Shown: one piece after another, positions 16,033-64,000 of the stretch
Numbering within the stretch: the first letter of the stretch is position 1
Layout of the letters: each line of letters starts with the position of its first letter
NCBI RefSeq assembly: GCF_011064595.1
Contig: NZ_JAALJI010000001.1
Location: 310,001-374,000, forward strand
Length of the DNA stretch: 64,000 nucleotides
Source: Paludisphaera soli
GTDB lineage: Bacteria; Planctomycetota; Planctomycetia; Isosphaerales; Isosphaeraceae
Direction: 5' to 3'
Translations under genes and position numbers: made by a program
The notes under the pieces: generated by a model
Seen by the model: the letters and a program-made list of their open reading frames with translations, nothing else
The model's database searches: none
What the model was told of the DNA's origin: nothing

Positions 16033-18258
16033 ATGATGGTCCTGACATTCCTCCTCGGCAACACGCTCGTCCTGCTCGGCGGATGGTGGGGCGCGACGCT
16101 CGGCCTTCGACAGCCGCCGGGGCCGCCCCGGCTGCTGGCCTCGGCCTTGCTCGCCTGGGTCTGGACCACGGTGGGCGTCCAGTTCCTGGGGACGCTGGGG
16201 GTCTTGCACGTCGGCGGGCTGCTGGCCTGGGCGGCGTCGGGCGCGCTCCTGGGCCGGGCGAGCGGCCTCGGCAGGCCGGCTATCGAGGCCCCTCCGCCGG
16301 CCGACGCCGAGGCGATCGGCCGGGAGGGATGGTTCGCCGTCGGGCTGGCCCTTTGGGCGGCCCTCGTCCTGGGGACGTCATCGCTGCTGATGCCGGTCAA
16401 GGTGGTCAGCGACGGGCCGATCTACCACCTGTACTTCGCGGCGCGTTGGTGGAAGGAGGGGCGTCTGTTCCTCGTGGCCTCGCCGTTCGGCGAGAGCGCG
16501 GCGACCTACTTCCCGGCCAACGGCGACCTCTGGTTCGCCTGGCTGATGACGACCTGGGGCGGCGACCGACTCGCCCGCGTCGGCCAGGCTCCGTTCCTCC
16601 TGATGGCCTGCGTAGCGGCCTTCGGCTGCGCCCGCGAGTTGGGGGCCGGGCGGACGGCCGCGCTGGTGGCGACCTCCTTGTTCGCCACGGCCGGCCCGTT
16701 GCTCCTGTTCACGTTCGAGGCCAACGTTGACACGATCTTCGTGGCGGGCTATCTCACGGCCGCTTTCTACTTCCTCCGCTACGGTCTGGGCCGGGACGAC
16801 TGGCCCGCACTCCTGCTGGGAGGGTTGGCGGCCGGCGAGGCCCTGGGGACCAAATCGGTCGGCAACCTGTTCGTGCCTCCGCTGGTCCTCGTCGGTTGCT
16901 GGGCCGTCGCGAGGCGGACGCGGAGGATCCCGCCGACGTTGAAAGGGTCGGCGGTCATCGTGGCCGGGGTCGCGGCGACCTCCATGTTCTGGTACGCGCG
17001 GAATGCGATCCTGACCGGCAACCCGCTGTATCCCCTGACGGTGAAGGTCGCGAGCCGGACCTGGCTTTCGGGCTGGTACGGGTCTGAGGCTATGCGGGAG
17101 AGCATCTACTTCATCCCCGTCTCCAACTGGCGGGCGCTGGTCGACACCCTGGTCGGCGTCCTCGACGCTCGCTCGGTCCCGCTCTGGCTGGCGGCGGTCC
17201 TGGGCGTCTGGGCTCTTGGACGGCGACGCGACCGGGGGGACGGTTGGGTCTGGACCTTCGCCCTGGGGGCCTTGCTCAATGTGTCGCTTTACTGGCTGTT
17301 CATCCCGTACAGGACGCAGCAACGGTTCATGCTGCAGGGGCTTGGGCTGGCCGTCGTCCCGCTCGCCCGGCTGCTCGACCGGGGCCGTTGGCTCCGTGTC
17401 GCGGCGACCTTGATCCTGGCGTTGCACCTGACGACGCCCCAGTCCTGGCCGTTCGGCCCTCGCGACGCCGACATCCCCTGGGACCTCACGCCCCAGATCC
17501 CCAACGCCGTGGGCGCGATCCTGCCGCTGGCGTCCGACCTGGCGCGGCTGGCCGCCGCCCGGTCTTCTCAGGACGTCCTCGCCGCGTTCGACGTTCCCGC
17601 GCTGGCCCTGGTCGCGGGGCTTCTCGTCTGGACCATCTCGCGCCTGTGGCGGGGGCTCCGCGGCCGCGCGACCTGGGGTGCCGGGCTGACGGCGATCGCC
17701 CTGCTCGCGGCCGTCGGCTGGTCGCAGGTGGCCCCCTTCGCCCGCGATCCGAGGCTTCTCGCCTTCCCGGCGTTCCCGGACTTCTATCGGGGATGGATGG
17801 AGCTGGACGCGCGGTCCGGTCCGTCGGGCTCGCGGGTGGCGTACGCCGGAACCAACATCCCCTACTATCTGCTGGGGGCGGGGCTCCGGAACGACGTCCG
17901 ATACGTGAACGTCGAGGGCCCTCGGGGCTGGCTGATGCACGACTTCCATCGAAGGGCCGTCGCCGAGGGGCGGGGCGAATGGCCCAACTCCCGCCCCGGC
18001 TGGGATCGCGAACGTCCCGACTACGACGCCTGGCTCGCGAACCTCCGGGCCGAGGGCGTGCAACTCCTGGTCACGACCCGAGTGAACCCGGGCGAGGGTG
18101 CCCACAACGTCGCCGACCCGGAGGGGTTCCCGATCGAGCGCGGTTGGGCCGACACCCACCCCGAGTCGTTCGAACCGCTCTACGGCGCCCGCGAGGGCGA
18201 CCCCTGGTTCCGTTTGTACCGGATTCGGACGGGCGGTGAATCGAAGAGGGAGATGTGA
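16033..18258 (+). CDS. Multi-spanning membrane protein, GT-C glycosyltransferase-like
   Basis: The 741-residue protein has about a dozen hydrophobic segments in its first 560 residues, followed by a soluble C-terminal domain of roughly 170 residues. The first periplasmic loop contains DGPIYHLYFAARWWKEG, placed like the Asp/His-containing catalytic loop of GT-C enzymes (PMT, ArnT), which use polyprenyl-linked sugar donors. Family assignment is from layout and this loop only. The start is ambiguous: ATG at 16033 begins directly before the first helix, with a purine run upstream, while a GTG at 15991 adds 14 polar residues. The VOC gene begins one base after the stop, so the two form an operon. 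Confidence 0.75.
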   Translation: MMVLTFLLGNTLVLLGGWWGATLGLRQPPGPPRLLASALLAWVWTTVGVQFLGTLGVLHVGGLLAWAASGALLGRASGLGRPAIEAPPPADAEAIGREGWFAVGLALWAALVLGTSSLLMPVKVVSDGPIYHLYFAARWWKEGRLFLVASPFGESAATYFPANGDLWFAWLMTTWGGDRLARVGQAPFLLMACVAAFGCARELGAGRTAALVATSLFATAGPLLLFTFEANVDTIFVAGYLTAAFYFLRYGLGRDDWPALLLGGLAAGEALGTKSVGNLFVPPLVLVGCWAVARRTRRIPPTLKGSAVIVAGVAATSMFWYARNAILTGNPLYPLTVKVASRTWLSGWYGSEAMRESIYFIPVSNWRALVDTLVGVLDARSVPLWLAAVLGVWALGRRRDRGDGWVWTFALGALLNVSLYWLFIPYRTQQRFMLQGLGLAVVPLARLLDRGRWLRVAATLILALHLTTPQSWPFGPRDADIPWDLTPQIPNAVGAILPLASDLARLAAARSSQDVLAAFDVPALALVAGLLVWTISRLWRGLRGRATWGAGLTAIALLAAVGWSQVAPFARDPRLLAFPAFPDFYRGWMELDARSGPSGSRVAYAGTNIPYYLLGAGLRNDVRYVNVEGPRGWLMHDFHRRAVAEGRGEWPNSRPGWDRERPDYDAWLANLRAEGVQLLVTTRVNPGEGAHNVADPEGFPIERGWADTHPESFEPLYGAREGDPWFRLYRIRTGGESKREM

Positions 18259-18259
18259 G

Positions 18260-18682
18260 ATGAAGCCTCGGATCAGCGTGATCACCCTCGCCGTGGAGGA
18301 CCTGGAACGGTCCCTACGGTTCTACCGGGACGGCCTCGGGCTGGCGACGGAGGGGATCATCGGGACGGAATTCGAGCACGGTGCGGTGGCGTTCTTCGAC
18401 CTCCAGCCGGGCCTCAAGCTGGCGATCTGGCCGCGTGCGAGCTTGGCACACGACTCCGGAGTCGCCCTGCACCCCCCGAGCCCGACCGAGTTCACGCTCG
18501 GCTGCAACTTCGCCTCTCGGGAGGAGGTCGACGCCGTGATGGCGAAGGCGGCCGGCGCGGGGGCTGCGATCGCGAAGCGTGCCGGCGGGACCTTCTGGGG
18601 CGGCTACGCCGGCTATTTTCTGGACCCCGACGGCCATCTCTGGGAGGTCGTCTGGAATCCGCACATGCCGCTCGCCGATTAA
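18260..18682 (+). CDS. VOC (glyoxalase/bleomycin resistance fold) protein
   Basis: The 140-residue protein shows the paired beta-alpha-beta-beta-beta modules of the vicinal oxygen chelate fold: LAVEDLERSLRFYRDGLGL at the N-terminus and GYFLDPDGHLWEVVWNP at the C-terminus, the latter carrying the metal-ligand Glu region. Such proteins act as lyases, dioxygenases or binding proteins for toxic compounds; this subgroup has no single known reaction. The ATG is one base beyond the previous stop and GAGGGAG lies upstream, indicating coupling with the membrane protein. Confidence 0.88.
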   Translation: MKPRISVITLAVEDLERSLRFYRDGLGLATEGIIGTEFEHGAVAFFDLQPGLKLAIWPRASLAHDSGVALHPPSPTEFTLGCNFASREEVDAVMAKAAGAGAAIAKRAGGTFWGGYAGYFLDPDGHLWEVVWNPHMPLAD

Positions 18683-18826
18683 GCCTCGCCCGCGACTTTC
18701 GGACGAAATCGAGAATCTCGCACGGATCCCCGCGCCGGCCGCCACTGATATTGGCGGAGACGAGAGGACGCGACGACGGCCGGGCGATCCCGGCGGGGCG
18801 ATCGCGAGGGTGCGGGGGGATTTGCG

Positions 18827-20743
18827 ATGCGACTGACCTTGAGGACGCTGTTGGCCTGGCTCGACGACACGTTGCCGCCGGTCCAGGTGCGGGAGATCGG
18901 CAAGCAGGTGGGGAGCAGTCCGCTCGCCCAGGAACTCGTGCAACGGATCCATCGGGTGACCCGGCAGCGACGGCTCACGGTGCCGAGCAAGAACGGCCCG
19001 GACGCGACCGACCCCAACCTTGTCGCCAGCTATCTCGACAACGACCTGAACGCCGAACAGGTCGCCGAGTATGAGAAGAAATGCCTGACGTCGGACGTCA
19101 ACCTGGCGGAGGCGGCCAGCGTCCATCAGATCCTGAGCCTGCTGGGCCAGCGGGTGCAGGTCCCGCCCGAGGCTAAGGGGCGGATGTACCTCCTCGTCAA
19201 GGGACGCGAGGCCCATGCCGCCTCGGCCGAAGAAGGGGAGCCCGCGGCCGACCCCAGGACGCAGCCGATCGTGCCCTGGGTCGTCCAGGGCCCCGCGCGG
19301 TCGCACTGGCTCGAACGCTTCGGGCCGCTGGCGGCCTGCCTGGCCTTGATCGCGCTCCTGAGCTGGTCGGCCTACGAGAGCCTGAAGTCGGACGATTCGG
19401 CCGCGCCGACGATCGCCCGGGACGTGCCGTCGCGCATCGGAGCCCGGGGCGGACCGGCGGAGCCGGCCGTCGCGGCGGTCGAGCCTCCCGCCCCTCCCCC
19501 CGTGGTCCCGACGGAGGCCGTCAAGGACGAGGAGCCGGCCCCGGAGGTCGCCGCCGAGGAGCCCATGCCCGAAGCCGCCGGGGCCGACGCGGCGACCACG
19601 CCCGTCGCGGCGGCCGTCGATGTCCCCGACGGGGCCGCCGCGGTGATCGCGCACATCGACGGGATGCTCCTGCGCTACGACGGCGAGTCCCGGGAGTGGG
19701 TCCGGAGCCGCGAAGGCGACTCCGTGCCCCCGGGCGACCGCATCATCGCCCCGCCCCCGTTCGCAGGACGGCTGGCGACCGCCAACGGCGCGTTCGACGT
19801 GCTGGAAGACTCCGAGGTGCGCCTGCTCGCCGCGGCGACCGACGGGGGCCCCGCCCTGGAACTGGTGCGGGGTCGGCTCCTGGCCGAACCGTCGACTTCC
19901 GGCGGGCCGTTGCACGTCGCGTTCCAGGGCCGCACCGTGGACCTGGAACGCCCGGCCGACCTGGCCGTCGGGTTCGAGTCCGACGCCCGTTGGTCGTACG
20001 GAGTCAGCCCGAGCGACGCCCCCTCGCTGACCATCCACGTCGGACCCGGCGGCGAGCTGGCGATCAAGGGCGTCAAGGCGACCGAGACGGTCAAGGGCCC
20101 GGCCTCGGTCCGGCTGAACGCCGCCGGCGCCGTGGAGCGCCTGGAAGGCGCGAACGCTCCGGAATGGCTCGCGGGGGCGCCGACCTCGGCCGAGCTGACT
20201 GCCCTCCGGGAACGCTGCCTGAAGGAGTTCGCCGAAGACCGTCCGGTCCTCGCCGACATCGTGTCGGCGACCGAGAACGAGGACCCCGACGTGAAGCGGA
20301 TGGCCGTCGCCGCCCTGAGGGGGCTCGGCGACCTTTCGCTGCTCACCCCGATCCTCGATCGCCCCGCCGATCCCGAGGCGCGTCAGGCCGCCATCGCCGC
20401 GATCCGCGAGGAGCTTGCGGCGGGCGAGGCGGCGTCTCGGCGGGCCTGGGAGCAGCTCCAGCTCGATTTCGGCGCGGTCGACCGCAACCGCCTGGGCAAG
20501 CTCCTGCTGGGCTTCCCGGCGGCCGACGCGGCCAGCGCCGAGACGCTGGAGTCGCTCGTCCAGGACCTCGCGCCGACCGAAGAATCGCTGGCCGTCCGCG
20601 AACTGGCGATCGACAACCTGAAGCGGCTGACCGGTCGCGAGGCCCCCGCCTACGACGTCGATCGGCCCGAACAAGGTTACGCCGCCTGGCGTAAACTCCT
20701 TGACGACCGCCAGCTCAGGCCGGCGGCCCCCGCCGCGAAGTGA
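18827..20743 (+). CDS. Membrane protein with anti-sigma-like N-terminus and FecR-like domain
   Basis: The 638-residue protein has four parts. Residues 1-115 form a helical cytoplasmic region with ASYLDNDLNAEQVAEYEKK, resembling anti-sigma zinc-finger domains but without their Cys/His ligands. A membrane helix lies at about 163-185. A Pro/Ala/Glu-rich linker follows to about 265. A FecR-like beta domain (SVPPGDRIIAPPPFAGRLA, then a region of about 170 residues) precedes a C-terminal helical HEAT-like part with DPDVKRMAVAALRGLGD. A GGGGGGA run precedes the ATG. It heads a same-strand block with two giant proteins. No sigma factor gene is nearby. Regulation of envelope genes is a guess; the family seems planctomycete-specific. 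Confidence 0.72.
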   Translation: MRLTLRTLLAWLDDTLPPVQVREIGKQVGSSPLAQELVQRIHRVTRQRRLTVPSKNGPDATDPNLVASYLDNDLNAEQVAEYEKKCLTSDVNLAEAASVHQILSLLGQRVQVPPEAKGRMYLLVKGREAHAASAEEGEPAADPRTQPIVPWVVQGPARSHWLERFGPLAACLALIALLSWSAYESLKSDDSAAPTIARDVPSRIGARGGPAEPAVAAVEPPAPPPVVPTEAVKDEEPAPEVAAEEPMPEAAGADAATTPVAAAVDVPDGAAAVIAHIDGMLLRYDGESREWVRSREGDSVPPGDRIIAPPPFAGRLATANGAFDVLEDSEVRLLAAATDGGPALELVRGRLLAEPSTSGGPLHVAFQGRTVDLERPADLAVGFESDARWSYGVSPSDAPSLTIHVGPGGELAIKGVKATETVKGPASVRLNAAGAVERLEGANAPEWLAGAPTSAELTALRERCLKEFAEDRPVLADIVSATENEDPDVKRMAVAALRGLGDLSLLTPILDRPADPEARQAAIAAIREELAAGEAASRRAWEQLQLDFGAVDRNRLGKLLLGFPAADAASAETLESLVQDLAPTEESLAVRELAIDNLKRLTGREAPAYDVDRPEQGYAAWRKLLDDRQLRPAAPAAK

Positions 20744-20801
20744 CCCGCGAGGGCGTCGGGTCCGTCCCGACTCGGGGGCGGCCCGGCGGCCGCGCGTTTC
20801 C

Positions 20802-20830
20802 TGGAAAGGGGGCGGTCTGCGTGGTATATT
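20802..20830 (+). promoter_or_regulatory. Candidate promoter upstream of the first giant protein
   Basis: TGGAAA (20802-20807) and TATATT (20825-20830) are 17 bases apart; each matches four or five of six consensus positions. The proposed TTG start is 110 bases downstream. If real, the giant genes can be transcribed without the FecR-like gene. Confidence 0.3.
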
Positions 20831-20939
20831 CCAGTCGCGGCGACGCTCGCGTCGGGTCGCCCGCTCCCGTCGCCCCCGCCGGCGCCGATCCCGAACCGCA
20901 ACATCGCGCCGGGCATCCTGTCCAACGAGTGCTGATGCG

Positions 20940-23900
20940 TTGAGAGACTCGACACCGTCCGGGATTTTGGGCGTCCGCGTCGCGCTGCTCGTCGCCTGCT
21001 GGGCGGCCGTCGGGACGGCCCGCGGCCAGCAGCCCGCGCCGGTCGTCCCGGCCCCGATCGAGGCCGCACCCCCCGCCGGGCCGACCCCGGCCACGCCCGC
21101 ATGGCCCCGCGAGGTGATCATCCTCCAGAGGGCGGCCGACGCCGAGGAGTTCTGGAGGAAGATCGTCGCGCCCGACTGGATCGTCACCCGCCCCACCCCC
21201 GAGCGCATGAAGGCCGCCGCCGACGGGGTGCGCGACCCGGCCGGCTCGAACGTGGAGGCCGTCCAGGTCAGGGGGACCGTCGAGGGCGACCGCGCCCGGG
21301 TGGAGCTGACGATCGCCTGCGCCCTCCAGGAGTCCGGACCTGCGTGGGTCCCGCTCGGGATCGACGGCTCGATCGTCCTGGGCGGACGCGAAGGCGATCG
21401 CGAGCTGGAGATGCGGCTGGGGGCGGGCGAGCGGTGGGAAGCCAGGCTGGAAGGCGCCCGGACGCACCGGCTCCGGATCGAGCTGACGGCGCCGATCCGG
21501 ATCAACGCCGAGCGACGGTCTCTGGACCTGGCGATCCCCATGGCCGCCGCGACCTCCTTCGATCTGGTGCTCCCCAGGAGGGCCTACGACGTCGAGGCCC
21601 GCCCCGGCGAGCCCGTCCGGCCGACGCCCGCCGCGGAGGGCGACGGCGTCCTGGCCTCCGCCAGCGTCTCCCCGAGGTCCCCCCTCGTCGTGAGCTGGAG
21701 CGAGCCGGGCGAGGCCGGCGAGCGAGCCGCGCCACTGCTCTCCGCCCAGGTCGAGATCGCCGTCGACGTGGATGCGGAGTCGGTCGCGGTCCGATCGTCC
21801 TGGGCGATCGCCTGCGCCCGGGGCGTCGCCCGCGGCCTCCAGATCCGCCTGGAGGACGACGAGGCCGTCTCGCGGATCCAGCTCAACGACCAGGTGCCGG
21901 CCTCGGGGATCGAACGTTCCCAGGGGGGCAACCTGCTGACGATCCAGCTCGCCGAGCCGATGCGCGCGGGCGAGTCGCGGCGGCTGGTCCTGGAGACGCG
22001 CAGGCCTTCGTCGGGCTCGCGGGTCCTGCACTTCTCGGGGTATCCGCTGGCCGACGCCGGCGAGCAGTCGGGATTCCTCGGCGCGACCTGCACCGGGCCG
22101 AACCTGTTCGTGAGCGTGGTCAAGTCCCAGGGCCTGCGGCGGATCGACCCCCGCGACCTCCCCACGGCGTTGAAGGCCCGTCCCAACACGACCCTGGCCC
22201 TCCAGTTCCTGGAGCAGCCCTTCGACCTGGCGATGGGAGTGGAGGACGCCCCGCCCCTCTTCGCGACGTCGGCGACGGCCGAACTCTCGATCGACCCCGA
22301 CGTGGTGCGCAACGAGACGACGCTCCTCGTGCGGCGAGTGCGGGGGACCCTGTTCGAGATCGAGGTGGCCGTTCCGGCGGACATGAAGGTTGTCTCGGTC
22401 GGGCCGCCGGACCTCGTCGAGTCCGCCACGCCGCCCCAGCCGGGGGCGACGGCCGGCGGCGACCCCGCCGCGGGCCGCGTGCTGAAAATCCGCCTCACGC
22501 CCCAGGGGAGAGACCGTCCGTCGTTCGCCCTGAAGCTCTCGGGGCGTCAGGCCGCGCCGGGGCCGGGAGATGCGAGTCTCGGCCTGTTCGCGCCGCAGGG
22601 CGCGGTGTCGACGTCCAGCGCATTCGTCGTTCGCGCCGGCCGCGACGTCGGCCTTGAGCCGCGCGACCCCGCGCTCGTCAAGGAAACGGCGGCCGAGGCG
22701 TCGCCCGCGGCCGCGTCGAAGTCCGAGGCCGACCCCGGCCCGCCCCCGCTCCGGCTCCAGACCGGCCGCAACCCGGCCACGCTCGACCTCCGCCTCGAAC
22801 GCCGGCCCTTGATCGTCCGCCGGCGGACCAGGCTCGCGGCCCGGGTCTCGCGGCGCACCGTCGAGGTTCGTCAGGAGACGACGTTGCAGGTCCGCCACGG
22901 GGCGCTCGCCTCGCTCGACGTGGTCGTCCCCGAGGGCGTCTCCGCCCGCTGGGAGGCTTCCGGGGACAAGCAGCCGATCCGAACCGAGGACCTGGAGGAC
23001 GCCAAGTCCGGCGCGCGACGGGCTCGCCTCCTGTTCGACCGCCCCGTCGTCGACGCCGCCTCGTTGACCTTCCAGTACCGAATCCCGCTGGGAAGGCCTC
23101 TCGACACGGCCGCCCCGACCGCCCTGCGCATCCCCTGGATCGAGCCCGAGACGGGCGAGCCCGGCGACTGTCTCGTCGAGCTGGCTTCCGACCCGGAGGT
23201 CCAACTCGTCGTCGACGATCCCGCCTGGGCCGAGGTCGACGAGGAAGCTCGCATCGGAGCGCGCTCGATACGAGCTTTCCGACTGGATCGGGATGACGCC
23301 GCCGAGGGCCTGGCGGTCTCGGCGCGGCTGGCGGAGGCCGTCGCGCTGCCCCCCGTGGTGGCCTCGCGGGCGCTCATCCGATCGACGCTCGAACCCGAGG
23401 GGGACCTTCGCGTGCGCGCCTGGTACGCGGTCGATTCCCACCCCGCGTCGATCGCGATCACCCTCCCGGAGGGTGCCCGCTGGCTCCGAGCCCGGGTGGA
23501 CGGGAAGACCCTGGAGCGGATCGACCTGGGCCCGGGCGGTGCGGCGAGCCGGCTCGACCTGCCCGCCGAGTCGGCCGCCCGGCCGGTCCTGGTCGACCTG
23601 GAATACCACCTGCCGGCCGCCTCGGTCCGTCGGCCCTGGCTGGCCCCCGCGCTGCTCGACGGAGCCGAGGTGCTTCAGACCTACTGGCTCGTCCAGGTCC
23701 CCTGGAGCCAGGCCGTGGCGGGCCAGCCTCGCGGGTGGGCCGACGAGAACGAGTGGTACTGGGACGTGTACGCCTGGAAGCGAAGGCCCGTCGCGGGCTC
23801 GGCCAAGCTGATCGCCTGGGCCGCCGGACCCTCCGCCCCGGCGGCGGCCGTCGACGACGCCCTCGACGTCGAGGACGCCTCCCACGGTTATCTCTTCAGC

Positions 23901-24380
23901 CGCGCGGGGCCCCCTTCGCCGATCCATCCGTGGGTGGTCTCGCGCGCCTGGACCGTGCTCGTCTGCTCGGGACTGGCGCTGGCCGCGGTCGCGGGGCTGA
24001 CGTTCGTCCCTTCGTCGGCCCCCTGGATCCTCGGCGCCGCGGCGGCCGTTGGGCTGTCGGCGGCCATGTTCCTGCCCGCCGGCGTCTTCGCCCTGGTCAT
24101 CCAATCCTCGAGCTTCGGCGTCGCGCTTGGGCTGCTGGCCTACCTGGGCCGTCGGATGGCGCTGCGAGAGGCGGCCGCCGCGGCCCCGCCACGACCGGCC
24201 GGCGGCCCCAACGTCGTCGTGCCAGACACCTCCCAGCGATCCGTGGGGGTCGGATCGGACGACTCGACCGCGATTCGTGTCCGGACTTCCTCGACCATGG
24301 ATTATCTCTCGCCGCCGTCCGGCCTCGAGGCCGACCCCCCGCTCAGCTCGCGTCGCGAGCAGGGCCTCAGGACGGAGTGA
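20940..24380 (+). CDS. Giant exported beta-rich protein with C-terminal membrane anchor (unit 1)
   Basis: The 1146-residue protein has a signal peptide (VALLVACWAAVGTARGQ), then about 950 residues with alternating short hydrophobic strands typical of beta-sandwich domains, then two or three membrane helices at about residues 1000-1070 and a hydrophilic tail. I recognise no catalytic motif. The N-terminal EFWRKIVAPDWIVTRPTPER is distinctive. No ATG lies at a sensible place; the TTG at 20940 directly precedes the signal peptide and is my choice, while the frame upstream to 20700 is Arg-rich and not protein-like. The next gene starts five bases after the stop. It is probably a periplasmic or surface protein of unknown function. 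Confidence 0.72.
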   Translation: MRDSTPSGILGVRVALLVACWAAVGTARGQQPAPVVPAPIEAAPPAGPTPATPAWPREVIILQRAADAEEFWRKIVAPDWIVTRPTPERMKAAADGVRDPAGSNVEAVQVRGTVEGDRARVELTIACALQESGPAWVPLGIDGSIVLGGREGDRELEMRLGAGERWEARLEGARTHRLRIELTAPIRINAERRSLDLAIPMAAATSFDLVLPRRAYDVEARPGEPVRPTPAAEGDGVLASASVSPRSPLVVSWSEPGEAGERAAPLLSAQVEIAVDVDAESVAVRSSWAIACARGVARGLQIRLEDDEAVSRIQLNDQVPASGIERSQGGNLLTIQLAEPMRAGESRRLVLETRRPSSGSRVLHFSGYPLADAGEQSGFLGATCTGPNLFVSVVKSQGLRRIDPRDLPTALKARPNTTLALQFLEQPFDLAMGVEDAPPLFATSATAELSIDPDVVRNETTLLVRRVRGTLFEIEVAVPADMKVVSVGPPDLVESATPPQPGATAGGDPAAGRVLKIRLTPQGRDRPSFALKLSGRQAAPGPGDASLGLFAPQGAVSTSSAFVVRAGRDVGLEPRDPALVKETAAEASPAAASKSEADPGPPPLRLQTGRNPATLDLRLERRPLIVRRRTRLAARVSRRTVEVRQETTLQVRHGALASLDVVVPEGVSARWEASGDKQPIRTEDLEDAKSGARRARLLFDRPVVDAASLTFQYRIPLGRPLDTAAPTALRIPWIEPETGEPGDCLVELASDPEVQLVVDDPAWAEVDEEARIGARSIRAFRLDRDDAAEGLAVSARLAEAVALPPVVASRALIRSTLEPEGDLRVRAWYAVDSHPASIAITLPEGARWLRARVDGKTLERIDLGPGGAASRLDLPAESAARPVLVDLEYHLPAASVRRPWLAPALLDGAEVLQTYWLVQVPWSQAVAGQPRGWADENEWYWDVYAWKRRPVAGSAKLIAWAAGPSAPAAAVDDALDVEDASHGYLFSRAGPPSPIHPWVVSRAWTVLVCSGLALAAVAGLTFVPSSAPWILGAAAAVGLSAAMFLPAGVFALVIQSSSFGVALGLLAYLGRRMALREAAAAAPPRPAGGPNVVVPDTSQRSVGVGSDDSTAIRVRTSSTMDYLSPPSGLEADPPLSSRREQGLRTE

Positions 24381-24385
24381 CGTCG

Positions 24386-27300
24386 ATGAAGGCCCCCCGG
24401 TCGAGGCTCTCCCTACTCAAGTGGCTCCTCGCAACCCTCGCGATCGCCCCCTCGTTTGGCGCGGGGCCGGTCGACGGGGAGCCCCCCGCCGTGATCCGCG
24501 TCCGAATCCCTTCGAGTCAGGTGGGCTCCCAGTTCCCGGCCGATACGCCGCTGAAGGTCCTGACGGCGGAAGAGTTCGACGGGCTCCTGCGGACGATCGA
24601 GGCCCGGGGTCGCGATCGCGAACGGGGGGGCCCCCGGCTGGTCCGGGCCCGACACCACGCTCGGTTCAGTCCCGGCGTGCTCGTCGGCCGTTCCGAGCTG
24701 GTCTCGGCGAGCCCGCCCGGGCCTTCCACGGTCTCGATCGAGCCCTGGTCGCCTGCCATCCTGAAAGGGCCCGAGTCCGCGGCGACGGTCGCGGCCTCGA
24801 CCGTGGGCAAGACGCTCCTCCGCCTGGAACCGGCGACCGATCCTGCGGTCCCCGGCGAGACGACGACGGTCCTGGAGTGGGAGTTGCGGGCGCGGCCGGA
24901 CTCGCGGGGCAGGATTTTCGCCCTCTCCTTGCCGGGGGACGAGACGACGAGCCTGACCCTCGACGTGCCGGAGGGTTGGGAGCCCTCGGGTGCGGCGGCC
25001 CGCCGCGAGGGACCCTCGCCGGGCGACGGGCCGGGACGCGAGACCTGGCGGTTTCACGGCCGTGTCGGCGGCCTCGACCTCCGGCTGACGAACCTGGCGG
25101 AGGCGCGGGCGTCCGGGAACCCGGCCCGGATCTGGGTCGGCGGACCGACCCGGATCGACCTCAACGCCGCGGAAAGACTGGCGACCCGGCCCGTCAACTG
25201 GACGACCGACTGGACGTACCAGGCCGACGAGCCCGGCGACGGATCGTTCGCGGTCGAGCTCGATCCCGGGCTGGAGCTGCTGAGCGTCGAGGGGCCGGAC
25301 GTGCGCGAGTTTCGGGCGGAGCCCGGCGCGCCGGGTAAGGTCGTGGTCACGATGACCGCGACGGGCCACCAGGCGTCCTCCGTACGCTTCCGCGGCCATG
25401 CGCGGGTCCCGGCCGAGGGGCCCTGGATCGTGCCGGGGATCCGCCCGCTGGCCCCGCTCTCCTGGACGGGCGGCTCCACGACCGTCGTGCTGGACGAGCG
25501 CCACGTCGTCCGCGAGTGCCGCGAACGCGAGGGCCGCCGGGTCCCGCCGCCGCCGGGGGAGGCCGCGAACGCGGCGGCCACGGTGCTCGTCTTCGACTCG
25601 TCCTCGCCCGGCCCGGTGGCCGAGCTGACGTTCCGGCCCGCCGGAGTCGAGCCGATCTACGGCGTGCGCGGGCGGATCGCCCTCCGCCCGTCGTCCATCC
25701 GGTTCGAATGCGAGGTCTCGGGGCTGGGCCTGCCCGGGTCCGTCCCGGAGCACGAACTGGCGATCTCGCCCGGCTGGGCCGTCGACCGCGTCGAGCTGGC
25801 GGGCGTCGAAGAGGCGGTCCCCTGGAGCCGGACCGTCCTCCCCGACGGATCCACCCGGCTCCGCGTGCTGGCACCGGCCTCGGACGCGGCCCCCGGCGGC
25901 CGGACTCTCGTCGTGGGGGCGGTCGCGCCCGCCGCCGAGGCCGAAGCCGACGCGCCCGCGAGGCTGATGCTCCCGCGCCTTCGCCCGACCCGCGGGCGGA
26001 TCGCTGAGGAAGTCTGGGTCGCCTCGATCGAGGGCGGCGTGCAGCTCCAGCCGGGCGCGGTGAAGGGGATCGCCTGGATCGACGCCGCCCAGGCGCCGGG
26101 CCTGCTCCCGCCCGCGTCCCCGGCCACGGCGGACCTTCGGCCGGTCCTCGCCTGGCGATGGACGGCCGACGACGCCGAGGCGCCCGTGGAGGTCCGCCGG
26201 GCGGACCCGAGCCCCAGGGGCTGGGTGCAACTCAAGGCGAGGCTGGAAGACGACGGCCGGCGAGTGGCGGTCTCGGGCAGCATCACGATCGCCGGGGCGG
26301 GCGCGGGGGCCTCCGCGGTCCGGGCCTGGATCGGCGAGCCGGCCGGCGGCCTGTCCGCCTGGACGTTCACCGATGCGGCCACCGGGGCCCGGCTGGCCCC
26401 GACGATCCTGGCCGAGCCCGATCGCCGACGACTGGGCTTCCCGGCTGGCGGCGTGGCCCTGGAGTTGACCGCCGAGCCCTCGCTGCGGGGCAGGGCCGCG
26501 GTGCGCTTCTCCGCGGCCCTCCCGTGGGACGGGCGTGGGACGATCCCCCTGCCCTGCCTCGCCGGCGTGGACGCGCCTCGGGGCGTCGTGGTGATCGAGA
26601 CCCCCGAGAAGGTCCGTACGCGGATCGACGGCGAGGGGCTGAGCCGGATCGAACCGTCGCTCGCCGAGGCCCTCGCGCCGGGGCCGGAAGCCTCGGCGCC
26701 GGTCCCGGCCGGGGCGGGTTGGAACACACAGGCGTTGACCTATTCGTCGGCCAGCTGCCGCCTCGACCTGGCGACCGAGCCGTTGACCCCGGCACCGACT
26801 CCGGGGCTGATCCGCGAGGCCCGGCTGAAGACGCGGGCGTTCCGCGACGGACGCTCGGCCAACCGCCTCTGGATGCTCGTGGCGGCCGATCAGACGCAGG
26901 CGTTGAGCTTCCGGCAGCCGGCCGGGGCCGTGCTGGCCTCGGCGCGGGTGGACGGCCGCGCCGTCGACCCCATTCGCTCGGGAGGCCGGATGACGATCCC
27001 CCTGCCCCCCGGAACCGGCGATGGGACGCGCGCCGTGGTGCTGGACTACCGGATCGAATCGGCGGGCCCTCCGGGAGACGGGCTGCTCCGGCCCGCGGCG
27101 CCCGAGATCGACCTCCCCTGCCTCTCGTTCAGTTGGGACCTGTCCTTGCCGCCCGGCGAGCTGTTCGGCGAGGCCGGCCCGGGATTCGTGGTCGACGCGG
27201 CCGAGCCCCGTCCGGTCTGGCCTTTCGGGGCCCTGGGGGTCTCCCGATGGCGTTGGCCCGGCGAGCGCCCCGCGACGCGGGCGCCGCGGGAGGACGCCCT

Positions 27301-30300
27301 TCGGCGGCTCGACGACCTGCTCGGCGAGTCTCCGGGCGAGGACCTGACGCTCGCCGAGGCCTTCATGCGCTGGGACGCCTCGCCCGAGCCGCTGCTCGTG
27401 GATCGCTCGGCCCTGGCCGCGGAAGGGATGGGGCCTCGATCGCGATTCGCCCCGATCCCCCCCGACCCCGGGAGGGCGGCGGTATCCCTGTCGGGCCTCC
27501 AGGCCCGAGGGCTGACGCTGGTCGTGGTGGACGACGCTCTGGTCGTGACCTCGCGCCGCGCCGCAGGCTCGCCCTCGGGTCCGCCGACGTGGCGCTCGGC
27601 CGTGGCGGAGGCGGTCCTTTGGGGATCGGACGCGACCGACCGCTTCCAGTCGGCCGCGCGTTGGCGAGGCGAGCCGACGGCCGCCGAGTCGTCATCGGTC
27701 GTACCGATCGACGGCCGGGATCGGGCCCCGGGCTGGTCGACCTGGAGGTTGACCGCGAGCGCCTGGCCACCCGCCGACGCCTGGGTCTCGACGGCGGACG
27801 CCGGCACGCGCGCCCTGACGGGGTGGGCCGCCGCGCTCGTGGTGCTGGCCGTCGGGCTCCGCCGCGCCGTCTCGCCGCGCCGCGGCCTGATCGCCCCCCT
27901 GCTGCTCATGATCGCCTCGGTTGCCCTGCACGACTGGTGGGCGGCGGTCCCCGCCCCGCTGACCGCCGGGGTCTTCGTCGGGGCCTTCGTGACGCTGCTC
28001 ATCCGCCTGGGCCGGCTCCTGCGCTCGACGTTCCGGGAACGCCGGGGCGCGACCGGCCCGTCGCGTCGCGGCGGGACGGCCCTGCTCCGACGTCGCGGGT
28101 TCCGCGCGGCCGCCTGGGCCCTCGCGGCCGCCGGGCTCTCTCGGGCCTCCGCCGATCCGGCACCGGGCGAGGTCGCCCCGATCGTCGCCCTGCTCCCCTA
28201 CGACGGGGAGTTCGATCCCGCCGCGGCCCCTTCGCTGGTGATCCTCCGCCAGGCCGACCACGAACGCCTCCGCGGCTGGTCCGAGGCCCCGCCGCCCCCG
28301 GCCGAGGAGCGCGCCGCGATCGTCATGGCCGAGCATCGGATCGCCCGCGCGGCCGAGCCCGACCTGACCGTGGAGAGCACCTACACTGTGCGCGTCGACG
28401 ACGGACCGGCCACGGCGTTCGAGTTCCCCGTCGGCGGCGCCCGCGACCTGGCCGCGACGCTGGCAGAGGATCCTGTGCCCGTGATCGTCAAGCCGGGGGG
28501 CGAGGTCGCGGCGGTCGTCCTGCCCGGAGGCCGAACCAGTCGGCTTCGGATCCGACGCTCCGTCACGCCGGACCGCGACGGCTCCCTAGATACGATCGAC
28601 CTGAAGATCAACCGTTCGCCGTCCGCACGCCTGACGCTTGATCAGCCCCCGGGGGCCCGGCCGGTTCAGCAACTGGCGGCTCGGGGCCGCGTGGTCGCCA
28701 AAGGGGACCAGACGATCGAGGCGGTCCTCGGGCCCGTGGACCGGATCGGCGTCTCCTGGACCTCGGCCGAGCCGGAGGTCGGCCAGCCCTCGGCGACCGT
28801 CGAGAGCCTGATGCTCTGGGACCTGGACCCGGCGGGCGAGCGAGTCCGCGCCCGGCTGACCTACCGCACCCGGCGGCGGACCTCGACGATCCGGATCGCC
28901 CTGGAGCCCGGCCTGGTGCCGCGATCAGTCCAGATCCCGGGGCTGGTCGACGCGTCGTGGGCGGGGACGGACCAGAACCCCGAGTGGATCGCCCGGGTGG
29001 ATCCCCCTCTGCCGGATCGGACGACCGTGTTCCTGGACTTCTGGCGTCCCTTGCGCACCGACGCCGCCGCCGGGATCGAAGGGCCGACGGCCCGGCGCTT
29101 CCCGCGCCTCGAACCCCTGGGCGTGGACCGCGAGGCGGGACTCCTGGCCGTCCGACGGCCGGGGCACTGGACGGGCCGGCTCGAACCGCCAAGGGACGCC
29201 GAGCCTGTGGGCGACGAGAGCTTCGTCCGGTCGTGGGGGGCCCTGCCCGACGACGTCCTGACCTTCGCCGGGACCGTCCGATTCAAGCCCCAGGACGTCG
29301 TCGAGTTCCGGACCGGGCCGACTCCCACGCGATGGCGGCGCAGGCCGGCGGTCCAGCTCCAGATCGAGGCCGGGCGGGTCGACTGCCGCTACGAGGTCGA
29401 GATGTCGGAGATTTCGGGCCTCCTCGATCGCGCGGAGCTGGCCCTGCCGGCCGAGCTGCTCGTGCTGGATGTCGAGTCGCCCGGCATGACCGACTGGAGC
29501 CGACCGCCGGGCGAGCCCCTCCGCGTCCGTTTCGACCGGATCGATCTGAAGTCCCGGCGCACGATCACGGTGCGTGGCAGGATCCCGGTGTCGCAGCTCG
29601 GGCCCGGACCCGGCCCGCGACAGCACCGAATCCGGCTCCCGTGGGTCGACCCCTCGGAAGGGCGAGACGCGGCGGGGACGCTGGAGGTCCTCTCGCGAGG
29701 GGGCGTCGACCTGCCAACCACGCCCGGGGGAGCGACGCTCGTGTCGTCCGAACCCTCGGACTCCGGCGATTCGCGGATCCGGCAGACCTATCGAATCGAC
29801 GACCCGGGCCGCGTGGGCGAGCTGCGATGGGCCCCCCGGCCCCCGCGCACGAACGTGGTGGTCGGGAGCCAGGCGACAATCCATCCCGACTCGGCCGAGT
29901 GGGTCGCCGTGCTCCGCTACGAGGTCGCGGGGGGGCCGCTGGACGCGATCCATCTGAAGGTGCCCGCCGCCTGGGCGGGGGACGACGCGCGAATACGGCT
30001 CGCGGGGCGGGACCACCAGCTCACGACCGAGTCTCGAGACGGCTGGACGTTCTGGACCATCACCCCCGATCGGCCGATCTGGGGGTCCCAGCGGCTGGTC
30101 CTGAGGTCCCGCTCGCCGATCGCCTCGGGCCAGGAGATGGCCTTCCCGCAGGTCGTCCCGCTGGGGCAAGGGCTGGTCGACACGTCGATCGCGTTGGTGT
30201 TCGCCACGGAGTCGGTGCCGACGACGGCCGGATCGGCCGGGCTCCGGCAGATCTCCTACGCAGGGCGATTCCAGGACGAGGAGTTCGGGGGCGCGACCGG

Positions 30301-31516
30301 CCTGGCCGCGCGGGCCTATCACGTCGAGGTCGAGAGCGATAAATGGTCGCTCGTCGTCCAGGCCCCGCCGGGCGAGGACGTGGGGGCGGACGCCGACGGT
30401 TCGTTCGCGAGGGTGCGCGACGCGGACGTCGCCTGCGTGCTGGCGGCCGACGGCTCGATGCTCGGCTCGGCCTCGTATCGGACCGAGCCGCGATCGGGCC
30501 AGTTCCTCATCATCGCGCCGCCGGGGCGCGGGCGGCTGCTCCGGGCCGCGGTGGACGGCGCGGCGGTCACGCCTCTCCTGGACCGGGAGTCTCGGTGGAC
30601 GGTCCCGCTGGGCGACCAGACCGCCAGGGTCGTCAGCCTGACCTGGGCCGTGGACCGCCCCGCCGCCGGCGCGGGAGGGGGGGCCCTGGCCCTCGACCTG
30701 CCCCGGGTGGGGGACGGCCGCACCCCGACCCTGCTCAGCGTCCACGTCCCGGCGGAGGCGACCCTCAAGGCCTCCTCGGTGGGCCTGACGCCGATCGCGC
30801 CGGAACGTCTCCAGCTGGATCGGGCCGACCGCGCGGCCCGGCGGGCCTTCGACCTGATCGCGGCGATGGATCGCGGGTCGGGTCGCGACCGGGGCCTGCT
30901 GGTTTCGCTCCTCATCGAGCACGAGTCGGCCCTGCGCGGTGCCGAGCGTGTACTGGCGGCGGCCTCCAAGGGCGCGGACCGGGCGCGTCGAGACCGCGCG
31001 GCTCGCGACCTGGAGGTGGTCAAGGCGTCGCGCCTCCAGGTCGTCGAGGCGCTTCGCTCGACCGGCCTGGACGAGCCGGTCGCCGCCGCATGGTCCTACC
31101 TCGGACTTCGCGGGAAGGGCCCGGACGTGGCCCCGAGCGGCGCGGGCGTACCCGAGCAGGTCGACCGCGAGCGGGTGCGTCGGCTGGGGCGGCCGGCCTA
31201 CTTCGCCGGGCCGGCGCCGGGGCTGACCGACCCGCCGATGCGCCTGGAGGTCGAAGGCGATCGCGCGCCGGAGTACGTCGCGGTCAGCGAGGGCCGCGCG
31301 CGCTCGCTGCTCCTTCTGGCCCTGCTGATGGGCCTGGGTCTGGCGGGATTGACCTCGGCCGGCCAGGCCGGGGCGCAGAGCCTGATCGCCGCCGCGACGC
31401 TCTCGCTGGCGGCGGTCGCGGGGGGGCCGCTGGCGCTCTCGGCCGGCGCCGCCGCCCTGGCGTGGGGTTGGCTGACGCGAGGGCCCGCCCCGCGCGAGGC
31501 GGGGTCGGGCTTCTGA
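24386..31516 (+). CDS. Very large exported protein, apparent fusion of two giant-protein units
   Basis: At 2376 residues this is the largest gene of the window. It starts with a signal-like LKWLLATLAIAPSFGAG; CGGAG lies eight bases before the ATG. Residues 30-1140 are beta-rich, with an STN-like segment near 975-1058 (LTLAEAFMRWDASPEPLLVD, later LTLVVVDDALVVTSRR). Membrane helices occur at about 1145-1215. A second signal-like segment (RAAAWALAAAGLSRASA, near 1237-1253) is followed by another beta-rich stretch of about 1050 residues and terminal helices at about 2307-2365. The layout signal, beta body, helices therefore occurs twice, like the preceding gene. No internal stop or frameshift is visible. 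Function unknown. Confidence 0.75.
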   Translation: MKAPRSRLSLLKWLLATLAIAPSFGAGPVDGEPPAVIRVRIPSSQVGSQFPADTPLKVLTAEEFDGLLRTIEARGRDRERGGPRLVRARHHARFSPGVLVGRSELVSASPPGPSTVSIEPWSPAILKGPESAATVAASTVGKTLLRLEPATDPAVPGETTTVLEWELRARPDSRGRIFALSLPGDETTSLTLDVPEGWEPSGAAARREGPSPGDGPGRETWRFHGRVGGLDLRLTNLAEARASGNPARIWVGGPTRIDLNAAERLATRPVNWTTDWTYQADEPGDGSFAVELDPGLELLSVEGPDVREFRAEPGAPGKVVVTMTATGHQASSVRFRGHARVPAEGPWIVPGIRPLAPLSWTGGSTTVVLDERHVVRECREREGRRVPPPPGEAANAAATVLVFDSSSPGPVAELTFRPAGVEPIYGVRGRIALRPSSIRFECEVSGLGLPGSVPEHELAISPGWAVDRVELAGVEEAVPWSRTVLPDGSTRLRVLAPASDAAPGGRTLVVGAVAPAAEAEADAPARLMLPRLRPTRGRIAEEVWVASIEGGVQLQPGAVKGIAWIDAAQAPGLLPPASPATADLRPVLAWRWTADDAEAPVEVRRADPSPRGWVQLKARLEDDGRRVAVSGSITIAGAGAGASAVRAWIGEPAGGLSAWTFTDAATGARLAPTILAEPDRRRLGFPAGGVALELTAEPSLRGRAAVRFSAALPWDGRGTIPLPCLAGVDAPRGVVVIETPEKVRTRIDGEGLSRIEPSLAEALAPGPEASAPVPAGAGWNTQALTYSSASCRLDLATEPLTPAPTPGLIREARLKTRAFRDGRSANRLWMLVAADQTQALSFRQPAGAVLASARVDGRAVDPIRSGGRMTIPLPPGTGDGTRAVVLDYRIESAGPPGDGLLRPAAPEIDLPCLSFSWDLSLPPGELFGEAGPGFVVDAAEPRPVWPFGALGVSRWRWPGERPATRAPREDALRRLDDLLGESPGEDLTLAEAFMRWDASPEPLLVDRSALAAEGMGPRSRFAPIPPDPGRAAVSLSGLQARGLTLVVVDDALVVTSRRAAGSPSGPPTWRSAVAEAVLWGSDATDRFQSAARWRGEPTAAESSSVVPIDGRDRAPGWSTWRLTASAWPPADAWVSTADAGTRALTGWAAALVVLAVGLRRAVSPRRGLIAPLLLMIASVALHDWWAAVPAPLTAGVFVGAFVTLLIRLGRLLRSTFRERRGATGPSRRGGTALLRRRGFRAAAWALAAAGLSRASADPAPGEVAPIVALLPYDGEFDPAAAPSLVILRQADHERLRGWSEAPPPPAEERAAIVMAEHRIARAAEPDLTVESTYTVRVDDGPATAFEFPVGGARDLAATLAEDPVPVIVKPGGEVAAVVLPGGRTSRLRIRRSVTPDRDGSLDTIDLKINRSPSARLTLDQPPGARPVQQLAARGRVVAKGDQTIEAVLGPVDRIGVSWTSAEPEVGQPSATVESLMLWDLDPAGERVRARLTYRTRRRTSTIRIALEPGLVPRSVQIPGLVDASWAGTDQNPEWIARVDPPLPDRTTVFLDFWRPLRTDAAAGIEGPTARRFPRLEPLGVDREAGLLAVRRPGHWTGRLEPPRDAEPVGDESFVRSWGALPDDVLTFAGTVRFKPQDVVEFRTGPTPTRWRRRPAVQLQIEAGRVDCRYEVEMSEISGLLDRAELALPAELLVLDVESPGMTDWSRPPGEPLRVRFDRIDLKSRRTITVRGRIPVSQLGPGPGPRQHRIRLPWVDPSEGRDAAGTLEVLSRGGVDLPTTPGGATLVSSEPSDSGDSRIRQTYRIDDPGRVGELRWAPRPPRTNVVVGSQATIHPDSAEWVAVLRYEVAGGPLDAIHLKVPAAWAGDDARIRLAGRDHQLTTESRDGWTFWTITPDRPIWGSQRLVLRSRSPIASGQEMAFPQVVPLGQGLVDTSIALVFATESVPTTAGSAGLRQISYAGRFQDEEFGGATGLAARAYHVEVESDKWSLVVQAPPGEDVGADADGSFARVRDADVACVLAADGSMLGSASYRTEPRSGQFLIIAPPGRGRLLRAAVDGAAVTPLLDRESRWTVPLGDQTARVVSLTWAVDRPAAGAGGGALALDLPRVGDGRTPTLLSVHVPAEATLKASSVGLTPIAPERLQLDRADRAARRAFDLIAAMDRGSGRDRGLLVSLLIEHESALRGAERVLAAASKGADRARRDRAARDLEVVKASRLQVVEALRSTGLDEPVAAAWSYLGLRGKGPDVAPSGAGVPEQVDRERVRRLGRPAYFAGPAPGLTDPPMRLEVEGDRAPEYVAVSEGRARSLLLLALLMGLGLAGLTSAGQAGAQSLIAAATLSLAAVAGGPLALSAGAAALAWGWLTRGPAPREAGSGF

Positions 31517-63505: not shown

Positions 63506-64000
63506 ATGAGCCTTCCCGCCGTGCTGGACATCGACGAGCTGGTCGCCCCGATCTCGGAGGCCGACCCCGTCGGCGAATACCTCCGCTGGGAGGACGAGTA
63601 CGCGGAGCTGGAGGAGGCCCGACGCGCCGACGAGGACGCCGGCGGCGACGACGTCTGGTCGCGCGACAAGAAGACGTCGGACTGGCCGGCCATCCGCAAG
63701 CTCGGCTCGAAGCTCCTGGCCGAGAAGTCGAAGGACCTCCAGATCGCCGCCTGGGTCGCCGAGGCCCTCGCCCACCAGCACGGCCTGGTCGGCGTGCGCG
63801 ACGGGCTGAAGCTCGTGCTGGCCATCCAGGACGCCTACTGGGACGCCGCCCACCCCGAGCGCGGCGACCTGGAGCTTCGCGAGGCGGTGTATGACTTCAT
63901 CGACCACGACCGCCTGTTCCCGTTCCTGGTGCGGGGCGCGATCGTGACGTACGTCCCGGGCGCCCCGGATTACACGTATACGTTCCTCCGCTACGAGGAG
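63506..64000 (+). CDS. tssA: Type VI secretion system protein TssA (ImpA), 5' part
   Basis: 165 residues are visible before the window ends in frame. DIDELVAPISEADPVGEYLR followed by an acidic stretch and DWPAIRKLGSKLLAEKSKDL is the ImpA N-terminal domain of TssA. TssA caps the growing tail tube and coordinates sheath assembly at the baseplate. GGGGAT lies a few bases before the ATG. Other tss genes are expected to the right, outside the window. The C-terminal subtype-defining domain cannot be seen. Confidence 0.9.
   Translation, partial: MSLPAVLDIDELVAPISEADPVGEYLRWEDEYAELEEARRADEDAGGDDVWSRDKKTSDWPAIRKLGSKLLAEKSKDLQIAAWVAEALAHQHGLVGVRDGLKLVLAIQDAYWDAAHPERGDLELREAVYDFIDHDRLFPFLVRGAIVTYVPGAPDYTYTFLRYEE

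What the first reader, a model, noticed from the sequence alone, without database searches (positions are those of the whole stretch)
18827..31516. Three-unit giant envelope protein locus headed by a FecR-like membrane protein
The 12.7-kb same-strand block encodes a FecR-like/anti-sigma-like membrane protein and then two huge exported proteins (1146 and 2376 residues). All giant units share the layout signal peptide, about 1000 beta-rich residues, C-terminal membrane helices, and no catalytic motif is seen. The upstream regulator-like protein has lost zinc ligands and has no sigma factor nearby. I know no described system with this composition; it could be a planctomycete envelope scaffold or surface complex.
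Basis: partly seen in the sequence, partly recalled or inferred. Interest (0 to 1): 0.8.

Follow-up and report, generated by a model that had tools for sequence, protein, structure and literature searches.

The report
Planctomycete giant periplasmic three-unit protein pair
Two neighbouring bacterial genes encode giant, apparently membrane-anchored proteins that seem to be built from many copies of a beta domain known from a sugar-transfer complex and from peptidases; the pair occurs in many planctomycetes and its job is unknown.

Summary
The block is real: P1 (638 aa), P2 (1146 aa) and P3 (2376 aa) on one strand. Two things change. (1) The conserved system is P2-P3, not P1-P2-P3. In loci I chose from profile hits, a second giant-unit gene follows P2 in 48 of 53 class loci and 18 of 20 loci from other classes. 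P1 is just upstream only in the window's family (20 of 26 loci; 0 of 27 elsewhere in the class). P2 has its own promoter-like site, conserved in the six genomes of the genus examined. (2) The giants have a recognisable fold. P2 and the two halves of P3 are homologous units (A, B, C) of about five beta domains plus C-terminal membrane helices. Predicted models of A and B both match the doubled luminal domains of ribophorin I/Ost1 and the N-terminal domain of M1 aminopeptidases; profile comparison supports the M1 link for two or three of 15 domains. No protease motif is present. Best reading: a non-enzymatic, inner-membrane-anchored periplasmic scaffold or receptor, possibly monitored by anti-sigma-type proteins (an ECF sigma/anti-sigma-vWA pair precedes it in five taxonomic families). 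Architecture is well supported; function is inferred.

The parts
18827..20743 (+). P1: anti-sigma-like N-terminal region (by weak zf-HC2 similarity in relatives), one TM helix (aa 165-183), proline-rich linker, FecR-like beta region (weak), HEAT-like C-terminus
   Evidence: neighbour of P2-P3 only in the window's family
20802..20830 (+). promoter-like site TGGAAA-17-TATATT with TG before the second hexamer, between P1 and P2
   Evidence: 1 found in 18600-21100, 0.0 expected in shuffles; aligned and conserved in G000-G005, changed in G011
20940..24380 (+). P2 (unit A), 1146 aa: N-terminal hydrophobic stretch, five beta domains, three C-terminal helices, tail
   Evidence: TTG start conserved in the six genus genomes aligned
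21228..23789 (+). P2 tandem beta domains (approx. aa 97-259, 260-437, 438-600, 601-772, 773-950; boundaries set by me from the model)
   Evidence: AF2 model; fold matches for the first two; profile comparisons
23943..24179 (+). P2 C-terminal helices (aa 1002-1080)
24252..24284 (+). P2 tail motif GSDDSTAIRVR (aa 1105-1115), predicted cytosolic
   Evidence: alignment; my tail pattern hits 22 of 26 loci of the family and 0 of 27 elsewhere in the class
24386..31516 (+). P3, 2376 aa: units B and C in one gene
   Evidence: unit genes are separate in L138 and L148
24386..28048 (+). P3 unit B (aa 1-1221): five beta domains, an alpha/beta insert, TM helices (aa about 1140-1214)
28049..31513 (+). P3 unit C (aa 1222-2376): five beta domains by homology, TM helices (aa about 2304-2360)
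   Evidence: not folded

Best explanation
P2 and P3 form a non-enzymatic, inner-membrane-anchored periplasmic complex of three homologous units (A = P2; B and C = the halves of P3). SHOWN by computation: three co-linear homologous units; the A gene followed by further unit genes in most loci inspected across the phylum; tandem beta domains, of which some match the M1-aminopeptidase-N-terminal/ribophorin-I type by predicted fold or by profile; C-terminal TM helices; no HExxH or GxMEN motif. INFERRED: that all 15 domains are of that type; that the products are exported and assemble together; that they form long periplasmic arms that bind or tether an envelope partner (protein, glycan or peptidoglycan); and that their state is reported to the cytosol by single-pass anti-sigma-type proteins: an ECF sigma/anti-sigma-vWA-YfbK pair in some lineages, possibly P1 in the window's family. 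P1 would be a linked accessory, not the head of the system.
For: Unit homology: A-B, A-C and B-C hhalign probability 99.8-99.9 over 791-845 columns; at most 1.2 against P1. All 15 comparisons of corresponding domains score 80-98%. Adjacency 48 of 53 class loci and 18 of 20 out-of-class loci. P2-profile matches in 166 of 198 class genomes and 80 of 244 phylum-drawn genomes, some of them partial. Folds: unit A aa 99-255 vs LTA4H Z 14.2, rmsd 3.1, 155 aligned; A aa 101-436 vs an oligosaccharyltransferase chain read as ribophorin I, Z 15.4, 310 aligned; the unit B model gives the same two kinds of match at its last two domains. M1-N profile vs A-D2 86% and A-D3 79%; 90 shuffled and 15 reversed controls at most 1.1%. 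ECF sigma, anti-sigma-YfbK, P2, P3 in that order in 5 of 20 out-of-class loci, each from a different family; Pfam confirms sigma regions 2 and 4, VWA and YfbK_C in 5 of 5, zf-HC2 over cut-off in 4 of 5.
Against: No experiment on localisation, assembly or ligand. Models are middling (mean pLDDT 69.8 and 60.2), and the two-domain alignments have rmsd 18-22 A. The M1-N profile matches only 3 of 15 domains above 40%; the other 12, including A-D1 whose fold matches best, are at 5.5% or less, and D1 and D5 do not match D2-D4 by profile within unit A beyond 18%. The window genome has an ECF-YfbK pair unlinked to P2-P3, so that association may be incidental. L125 and L129 have P2 without P3 beside it; in L039 no P3 is found after a scaffold gap. 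In 25 of 53 class loci the gene just upstream of P2 is inositol-monophosphatase-like, which suggests ordinary inherited neighbours.
Confidence: 0.5

Rival explanations
1. Ost1-like accessory complex of a periplasmic GT-C glycosyltransferase: the arms bind glycosylated or substrate proteins, as Ost1/ribophorin I is reported to do in the oligosaccharyltransferase, and work with the PMT-like GT-C encoded upstream (16033-18258).
For: Best fold matches of both models are oligosaccharyltransferase chains read as Ost1/ribophorin I. Ost1 has two similar beta luminal domains and is reported to bind glycosylated peptides (PMC7226087, passages). A GT-C gene (w12 cluster) lies one or two genes upstream of P1 in 16 of 21 loci with P1.
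Against: The GT-C gene goes with P1 rather than P2-P3: it lies beside P1 in L055, while P2-P3 of that genome is on another contig (L098). No Ribophorin_I (PF04597) match in 21 relatives at E <= 1. M1-N domains match about as well per domain.
Confidence: 0.15
2. Protease-derived chaperone or quality-control arms: catalytically dead relatives of M1 peptidase N-terminal domains that capture unfolded exported proteins.
For: M1-N fold and profile matches with no HExxH.
Against: The same fold search also lists non-peptidase chains (TFIID, oligosaccharyltransferase), so the fold does not imply peptide capture. I recognised no chaperone or protease cluster recurring beside the pair among the neighbours printed; not all were annotated.
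Confidence: 0.12
3. P1-P2-P3 is one regulated operon in which P1 is the dedicated anti-sigma-type sensor of the giant complex.
For: P1 is upstream on the same strand in 20 of 26 loci of the family (19 by script plus L049), overlapping P2 by 4 bp in L049. Topology resembles the ECF-linked anti-sigma-YfbK proteins: N-terminal region, hydrophobic helix, large remainder.
Against: Own conserved promoter-like site before P2 in the genus; no P1 in the fetched stretch of 27 of 27 other class loci; no HxxxCxxC in 19 of 19 and no ECF sigma factor in the window.
Confidence: 0.15

Closest known systems
Ribophorin I / Ost1 (oligosaccharyltransferase subunit)
   Same: Tandem M1-N-like beta domains on the non-cytosolic side and a C-terminal membrane anchor (Ost1 side from recall and PMC7226087 passages); best fold match of two separately predicted units.
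   Different: Two such domains in Ost1, about five per unit here; no PF04597 match; no known STT3 partner. The result tables name the complex, not the subunit: reading the chains as Ost1/ribophorin I rests on recalled chain naming and on chain lengths.
M1 aminopeptidases (LTA4H, ERAP1, PepN), N-terminal domain
   Same: Fold of single domains (Z about 14, rmsd 2.8-3.1) and a remote profile match of A-D2 and A-D3.
   Different: No HExxH or GxMEN motif and no Pfam peptidase match; domains in tandem and membrane-anchored.
ECF sigma / anti-sigma fused to vWA-YfbK gene pairs
   Same: Directly upstream of P2-P3 in 5 of 20 out-of-class loci.
   Different: None found in the window; the window genome has such a pair elsewhere, unlinked. 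P1 shows no vWA match and no HxxxCxxC.
Planctomycete 'giant genes' (>5 kb)
   Same: P3 (7.1 kb) falls in this size class, counted in Isosphaeraceae genomes (PMC5352709, passages).
   Different: That category is defined by size; the passages I saw do not describe this family.

Membership tests
Ribophorin I / Ost1 | two tandem M1-N-like beta domains, luminal | tested here: met
   Fold only: Foldseek E 1.1e-10 and 4.5e-8, VIA Z 15.4 and 14.6 for units A and B; rmsd 18-22 A over two domains; subunit identity of the matched chains recalled
Ribophorin I / Ost1 | sequence match to PF04597 | tested here: not met
   0 of 21 genomes at E <= 1; no such Pfam match of P2/P3 or their relatives
Ribophorin I / Ost1 | subunit of an STT3-type oligosaccharyltransferase | not testable with these tools
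   needs a pull-down or structure
M1 aminopeptidase | N-terminal beta-saddle domain | tested here: met
   A aa 99-255 Z 14.2, rmsd 3.1; B Z 14.1, rmsd 2.8; profile 86% and 79% for A-D2 and A-D3, B-D3 43%, 12 others at most 5.5%, controls at most 1.1%
M1 aminopeptidase | catalytic HExxH and GxMEN motifs | tested here: not met
   none in P2 or P3
FecR family (P1) | Pfam FecR domain | tested here: inconclusive
   not in P1 at E <= 1; 1 of 19 family members at E 0.077
zf-HC2 anti-sigma factor (P1) | HxxxCxxC zinc motif | tested here: not met
   0 of 19 family members; Pfam zf-HC2 matches 2 of 19
zf-HC2 anti-sigma factor (P1) | cognate ECF sigma gene nearby | tested here: not met
   profile of five ECF proteins finds none in the window
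alpha-2-macroglobulin / MG-domain proteins | MG-domain fold | tested here: inconclusive
   complement C3 at rank 22 for unit B, probability 0.38

The most novel reading that the evidence does not exclude
Planctomycetota have an ancient, phylum-wide three-subunit periplasmic machine built from tandem ribophorin-I/M1-N-like domains, coupled to transcription through anti-sigma-type partners; in architecture it is a prokaryotic counterpart of the Ost1 luminal arm, for which a 2016 survey found no promising prokaryotic relative.
Probability: 0.25. Interest if true: 0.85.

Novelty: new variant of a known kind. Interest (0 to 1): 0.62.

Why it matters
Planctomycetes have an unusual cell envelope and many giant genes of unknown role. 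A three-unit giant system found in most sampled genomes of its class, with a testable domain model, is a good candidate for envelope architecture in this phylum. Its similarity to Ost1 touches an open question: a 2016 study reports no promising prokaryotic relatives of the non-catalytic oligosaccharyltransferase subunits (PMC4973528, passages seen).

Tried and rejected
Pfam, NCBIfam and PDB sequence searches with P2/P3 or their alignments gave no credible family (NCBIfam was run on the window proteins only). PHROGs and PADLOC were not searched. Self-trained gene calling chose antisense frames in this 70% GC window and was replaced by a model seeded with four genes. That model failed on low-GC loci (L050-L054), so stop-to-stop frames plus profiles were used, then models trained on the unit genes of each locus. 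In one search the iterative profiles absorbed each other's families; unit homology rests. Inositol-monophosphatase and acetyltransferase neighbours (one of each checked by Pfam) were judged ordinary inherited neighbours. A split P3 in L129 was suspected, but the next genes look unrelated. The DDSTAIR tail could be a kinase site, but my pattern finds it only in the window's family within the class. In the B model, integrin alpha chains (from rank 5), complement C3 (rank 22) and CD109 (rank 45) follow the top oligosaccharyltransferase rows; in the A model integrins start at rank 7.

I did not use the third Foldseek job or two VIA jobs. The only genome-contig scan returned 7 loci, so the structure alignments had 8 and 5 rows.

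Papers: PMC10632474 (passages and section 9), PMC5352709, PMC7226087 and PMC4973528 (passages), PMC8567305 (outline and abstract). Other papers were seen only in search listings. No listed title or abstract start named this gene pair; this covers only the open-licence library and the listed rows.

Full report
OBSERVATION. The window is a 70% GC sequence at C1:310001-374000 of its genome. The three genes exist as described: P1 18827-20743 (638 aa), P2 20940-24380 (1146 aa, TTG start) and P3 24386-31516 (2376 aa). P2 homologues in five other genomes of the genus are 51-76% identical with no stops. P3 is a single frame of 2360-2391 aa in four of these five and 2384 aa in G011. In the fifth, G004, Ns begin shortly after P2 and no P3 match is found in the rest of the stretch, so I cannot say whether P3 is missing or lost in the assembly.

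WHAT IS CONSERVED. A P2 profile matches 166 of 198 genomes sampled from the class and 80 of 244 drawn from the phylum, 56 of the 80 outside the class by the kinship column. Some matches, mainly in family f3, are weak or partial. I inspected 53 class loci that hold P2 (window itself not counted), chosen from the hits and not a random sample; four genomes contribute two loci. P2 is followed on the same strand by a profile-supported second unit gene in 48 of 53. The five misses are L039 (gap, above), L042 (contig end), L097 (a 2467-aa gene of the right size below threshold), and L125 and L129 (no P3 beside P2). Gaps in the 48 run from -59 to 386 bp, often a 4-bp overlap. In 20 loci from other classes, also chosen, 18 show adjacency; L139 is cut by a contig end and L142 held only the large gene.

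P1 IS A SEPARATE FAMILY. P1 homologues occur in 19 of 21 genomes, own included. P1 lies upstream on the same strand within 5 kb of P2 in 19 of 26 loci of the window's family by script, plus L049, where a 4-bp overlap made the script call it downstream: 20 of 26. It is in none of the 27 other class loci. That the family is Isosphaeraceae is inferred: one search returned records titled Isosphaeraceae (L062) and Singulisphaera (L064) whose contig lengths equal those of G009 and G118. Between P1 and P2 a promoter-like site (20802-20830) is conserved in the six genomes of the genus aligned, and altered in G011. P1 therefore need not head the P2-P3 unit. None of 19 aligned P1-family members has HxxxCxxC. 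Pfam finds zf-HC2 in 2 of 19, FecR in 1 of 19 at E 0.077 and HEAT_2 in 12 of 19.

ANATOMY. Profile comparison shows that P2 (unit A) and the two halves of P3 (units B and C) are homologous along 791-845 columns at 99.8-99.9% probability, with at most 1.2% against P1. Each unit contains internal repeats offset by about 155-195 residues. All 15 comparisons of corresponding domains across units score 80-98%; many pairs among D2-D4 match each other, whereas D1 and D5 mostly match only their counterparts (domain limits set by me). In L138 three consecutive genes of 1112, 1237 and 1138 aa take the place of the pair. All three score highest with the broad P2 profile; between the B and C profiles the second gene prefers B (209.9 vs 125.0 bits) and the third C (185.1 vs 110.6). 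L148 also has three separate genes, both later ones preferring B. L154 holds three unit genes but starts at a contig end. P3 is thus a fusion of two units, or the separate genes are fissions.

FOLD. AlphaFold2 of P2 (8 rows) gave mean pLDDT 69.8, mostly 70-91 over aa 100-900, a chain of beta domains and three C-terminal helices. Foldseek's best matches are oligosaccharyltransferase chains (E 1.1e-10), which I read as ribophorin I/Ost1 from recalled chain naming and from chain lengths. VIA gives Z 15.4 over 310 residues (rmsd 21.7, read as a hinge) and, for aa 99-255, LTA4H at Z 14.2, rmsd 3.1. Unit B, folded separately from 5 rows (pLDDT 60.2), gave the same two kinds of match at its last two domains: Z 14.6 (rmsd 18.6) to the yeast chain and Z 14.1, rmsd 2.8 over 148 residues to an M1 peptidase. 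Unit C was not folded. A separate sequence test used 13 planctomycete M1 N-terminal domains, of 14 found (one cut by a contig end was dropped). They matched A-D2 at 86%, A-D3 at 79% and B-D3 at 43%; the other 12 domains, A-D1 included, were at 5.5% or less. Ninety column-shuffled and 15 reversed controls reached at most 1.1%. So M1-N-like type is supported by fold for A-D1, A-D2, B-D4 and B-D5, by profile for A-D2 and A-D3, and by homology only for the rest. P2 and P3 contain no HExxH or GxMEN. The match cannot separate kinship with Ost1 from kinship with M1-N domains in general.

NEIGHBOURS. In 5 of 20 out-of-class loci (L140, L145, L147, L150, L151, each from a different family) the order is ECF sigma, anti-sigma fused to vWA/YfbK, P2, P3, with overlaps or gaps of at most 65 bp between the first three genes. 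Pfam finds Sigma70 regions 2 and 4 in 5 of 5, VWA and YfbK_C in 5 of 5, and zf-HC2 over its cut-off in 4 of 5, not L145. The window genome has an ECF-YfbK pair on contig C165 with no P2-P3 beside it, so the association is suggestive only. In 25 of 53 class loci the gene immediately upstream of P2 belongs to one inositol-monophosphatase-like cluster (one member checked by Pfam), and an acetyltransferase cluster has 9 members downstream of P3 (one checked). A GT-C glycosyltransferase lies one or two genes upstream of P1 in 16 of 21 loci with P1.

MECHANISM. I take P2-P3 to be a non-enzymatic, inner-membrane-anchored periplasmic scaffold or receptor of three long multi-domain arms, with envelope status relayed by single-pass anti-sigma-type proteins where they are linked. 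The architecture is computed; export, assembly, ligand and signalling are inferred. An Ost1-like glycosylation role and a chaperone-like role are the main rivals.

KNOWN AND NEW. P3 falls in the 'giant gene' size class reported for Isosphaeraceae (PMC5352709, passages). Ost1's doubled beta luminal domains and its reported binding of glycosylated peptides come from PMC7226087 (passages). A 2016 survey reports no promising prokaryotic relatives of the non-catalytic OST subunits (PMC4973528, passages). My nine literature searches listed no title or abstract start that describes this pair; they cover one open-licence library. Since the domain fold is known and the arrangement is not, to my knowledge, described, I rate it a new variant of a known kind.

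Noticed in passing
L051, L120, L122 (versus L052, L119, L121): G018, G024 and G041 each carry two P2-P3 pairs (G195 too); in these three, one pair lies beside genes that look like a Tad pilus system (recalled naming, from sequence printed).
   Followed up: partly
window 24252-24284: The predicted cytosolic tail of P2 carries GSDDSTAIRVR; a loose pattern for it hits 22 of 26 loci of the family and 0 of 27 elsewhere in the class. It could be a phosphorylation or docking site.
   Followed up: partly
L055 and L059: P1-family genes sit near genes that look like HPF, PtsN, HPr or PTS enzyme I (recalled naming) in two other families.
   Followed up: no
L159 4837-8025 (window genome, contig C165): An ECF sigma/anti-sigma-YfbK gene pair unlinked to P2-P3; a second YfbK homologue lies on contig C116.
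   Followed up: partly
window 35806-38568: ABC_transp_aux (GldG-type, recalled) protein beside an ABC ATPase and a DUF4340 protein.
   Followed up: no
window 63506-64000: ImpA_N domain, a type VI secretion marker, running off the window edge.
   Followed up: no
window 16033-18258: PMT-like GT-C glycosyltransferase that keeps company with P1 in the family.
   Followed up: partly
window 24386-28048, P3 aa about 960-1100: Unit B has an alpha/beta insert before its membrane helices that resembles, by eye, an STN domain; Pfam did not call it.
   Followed up: no
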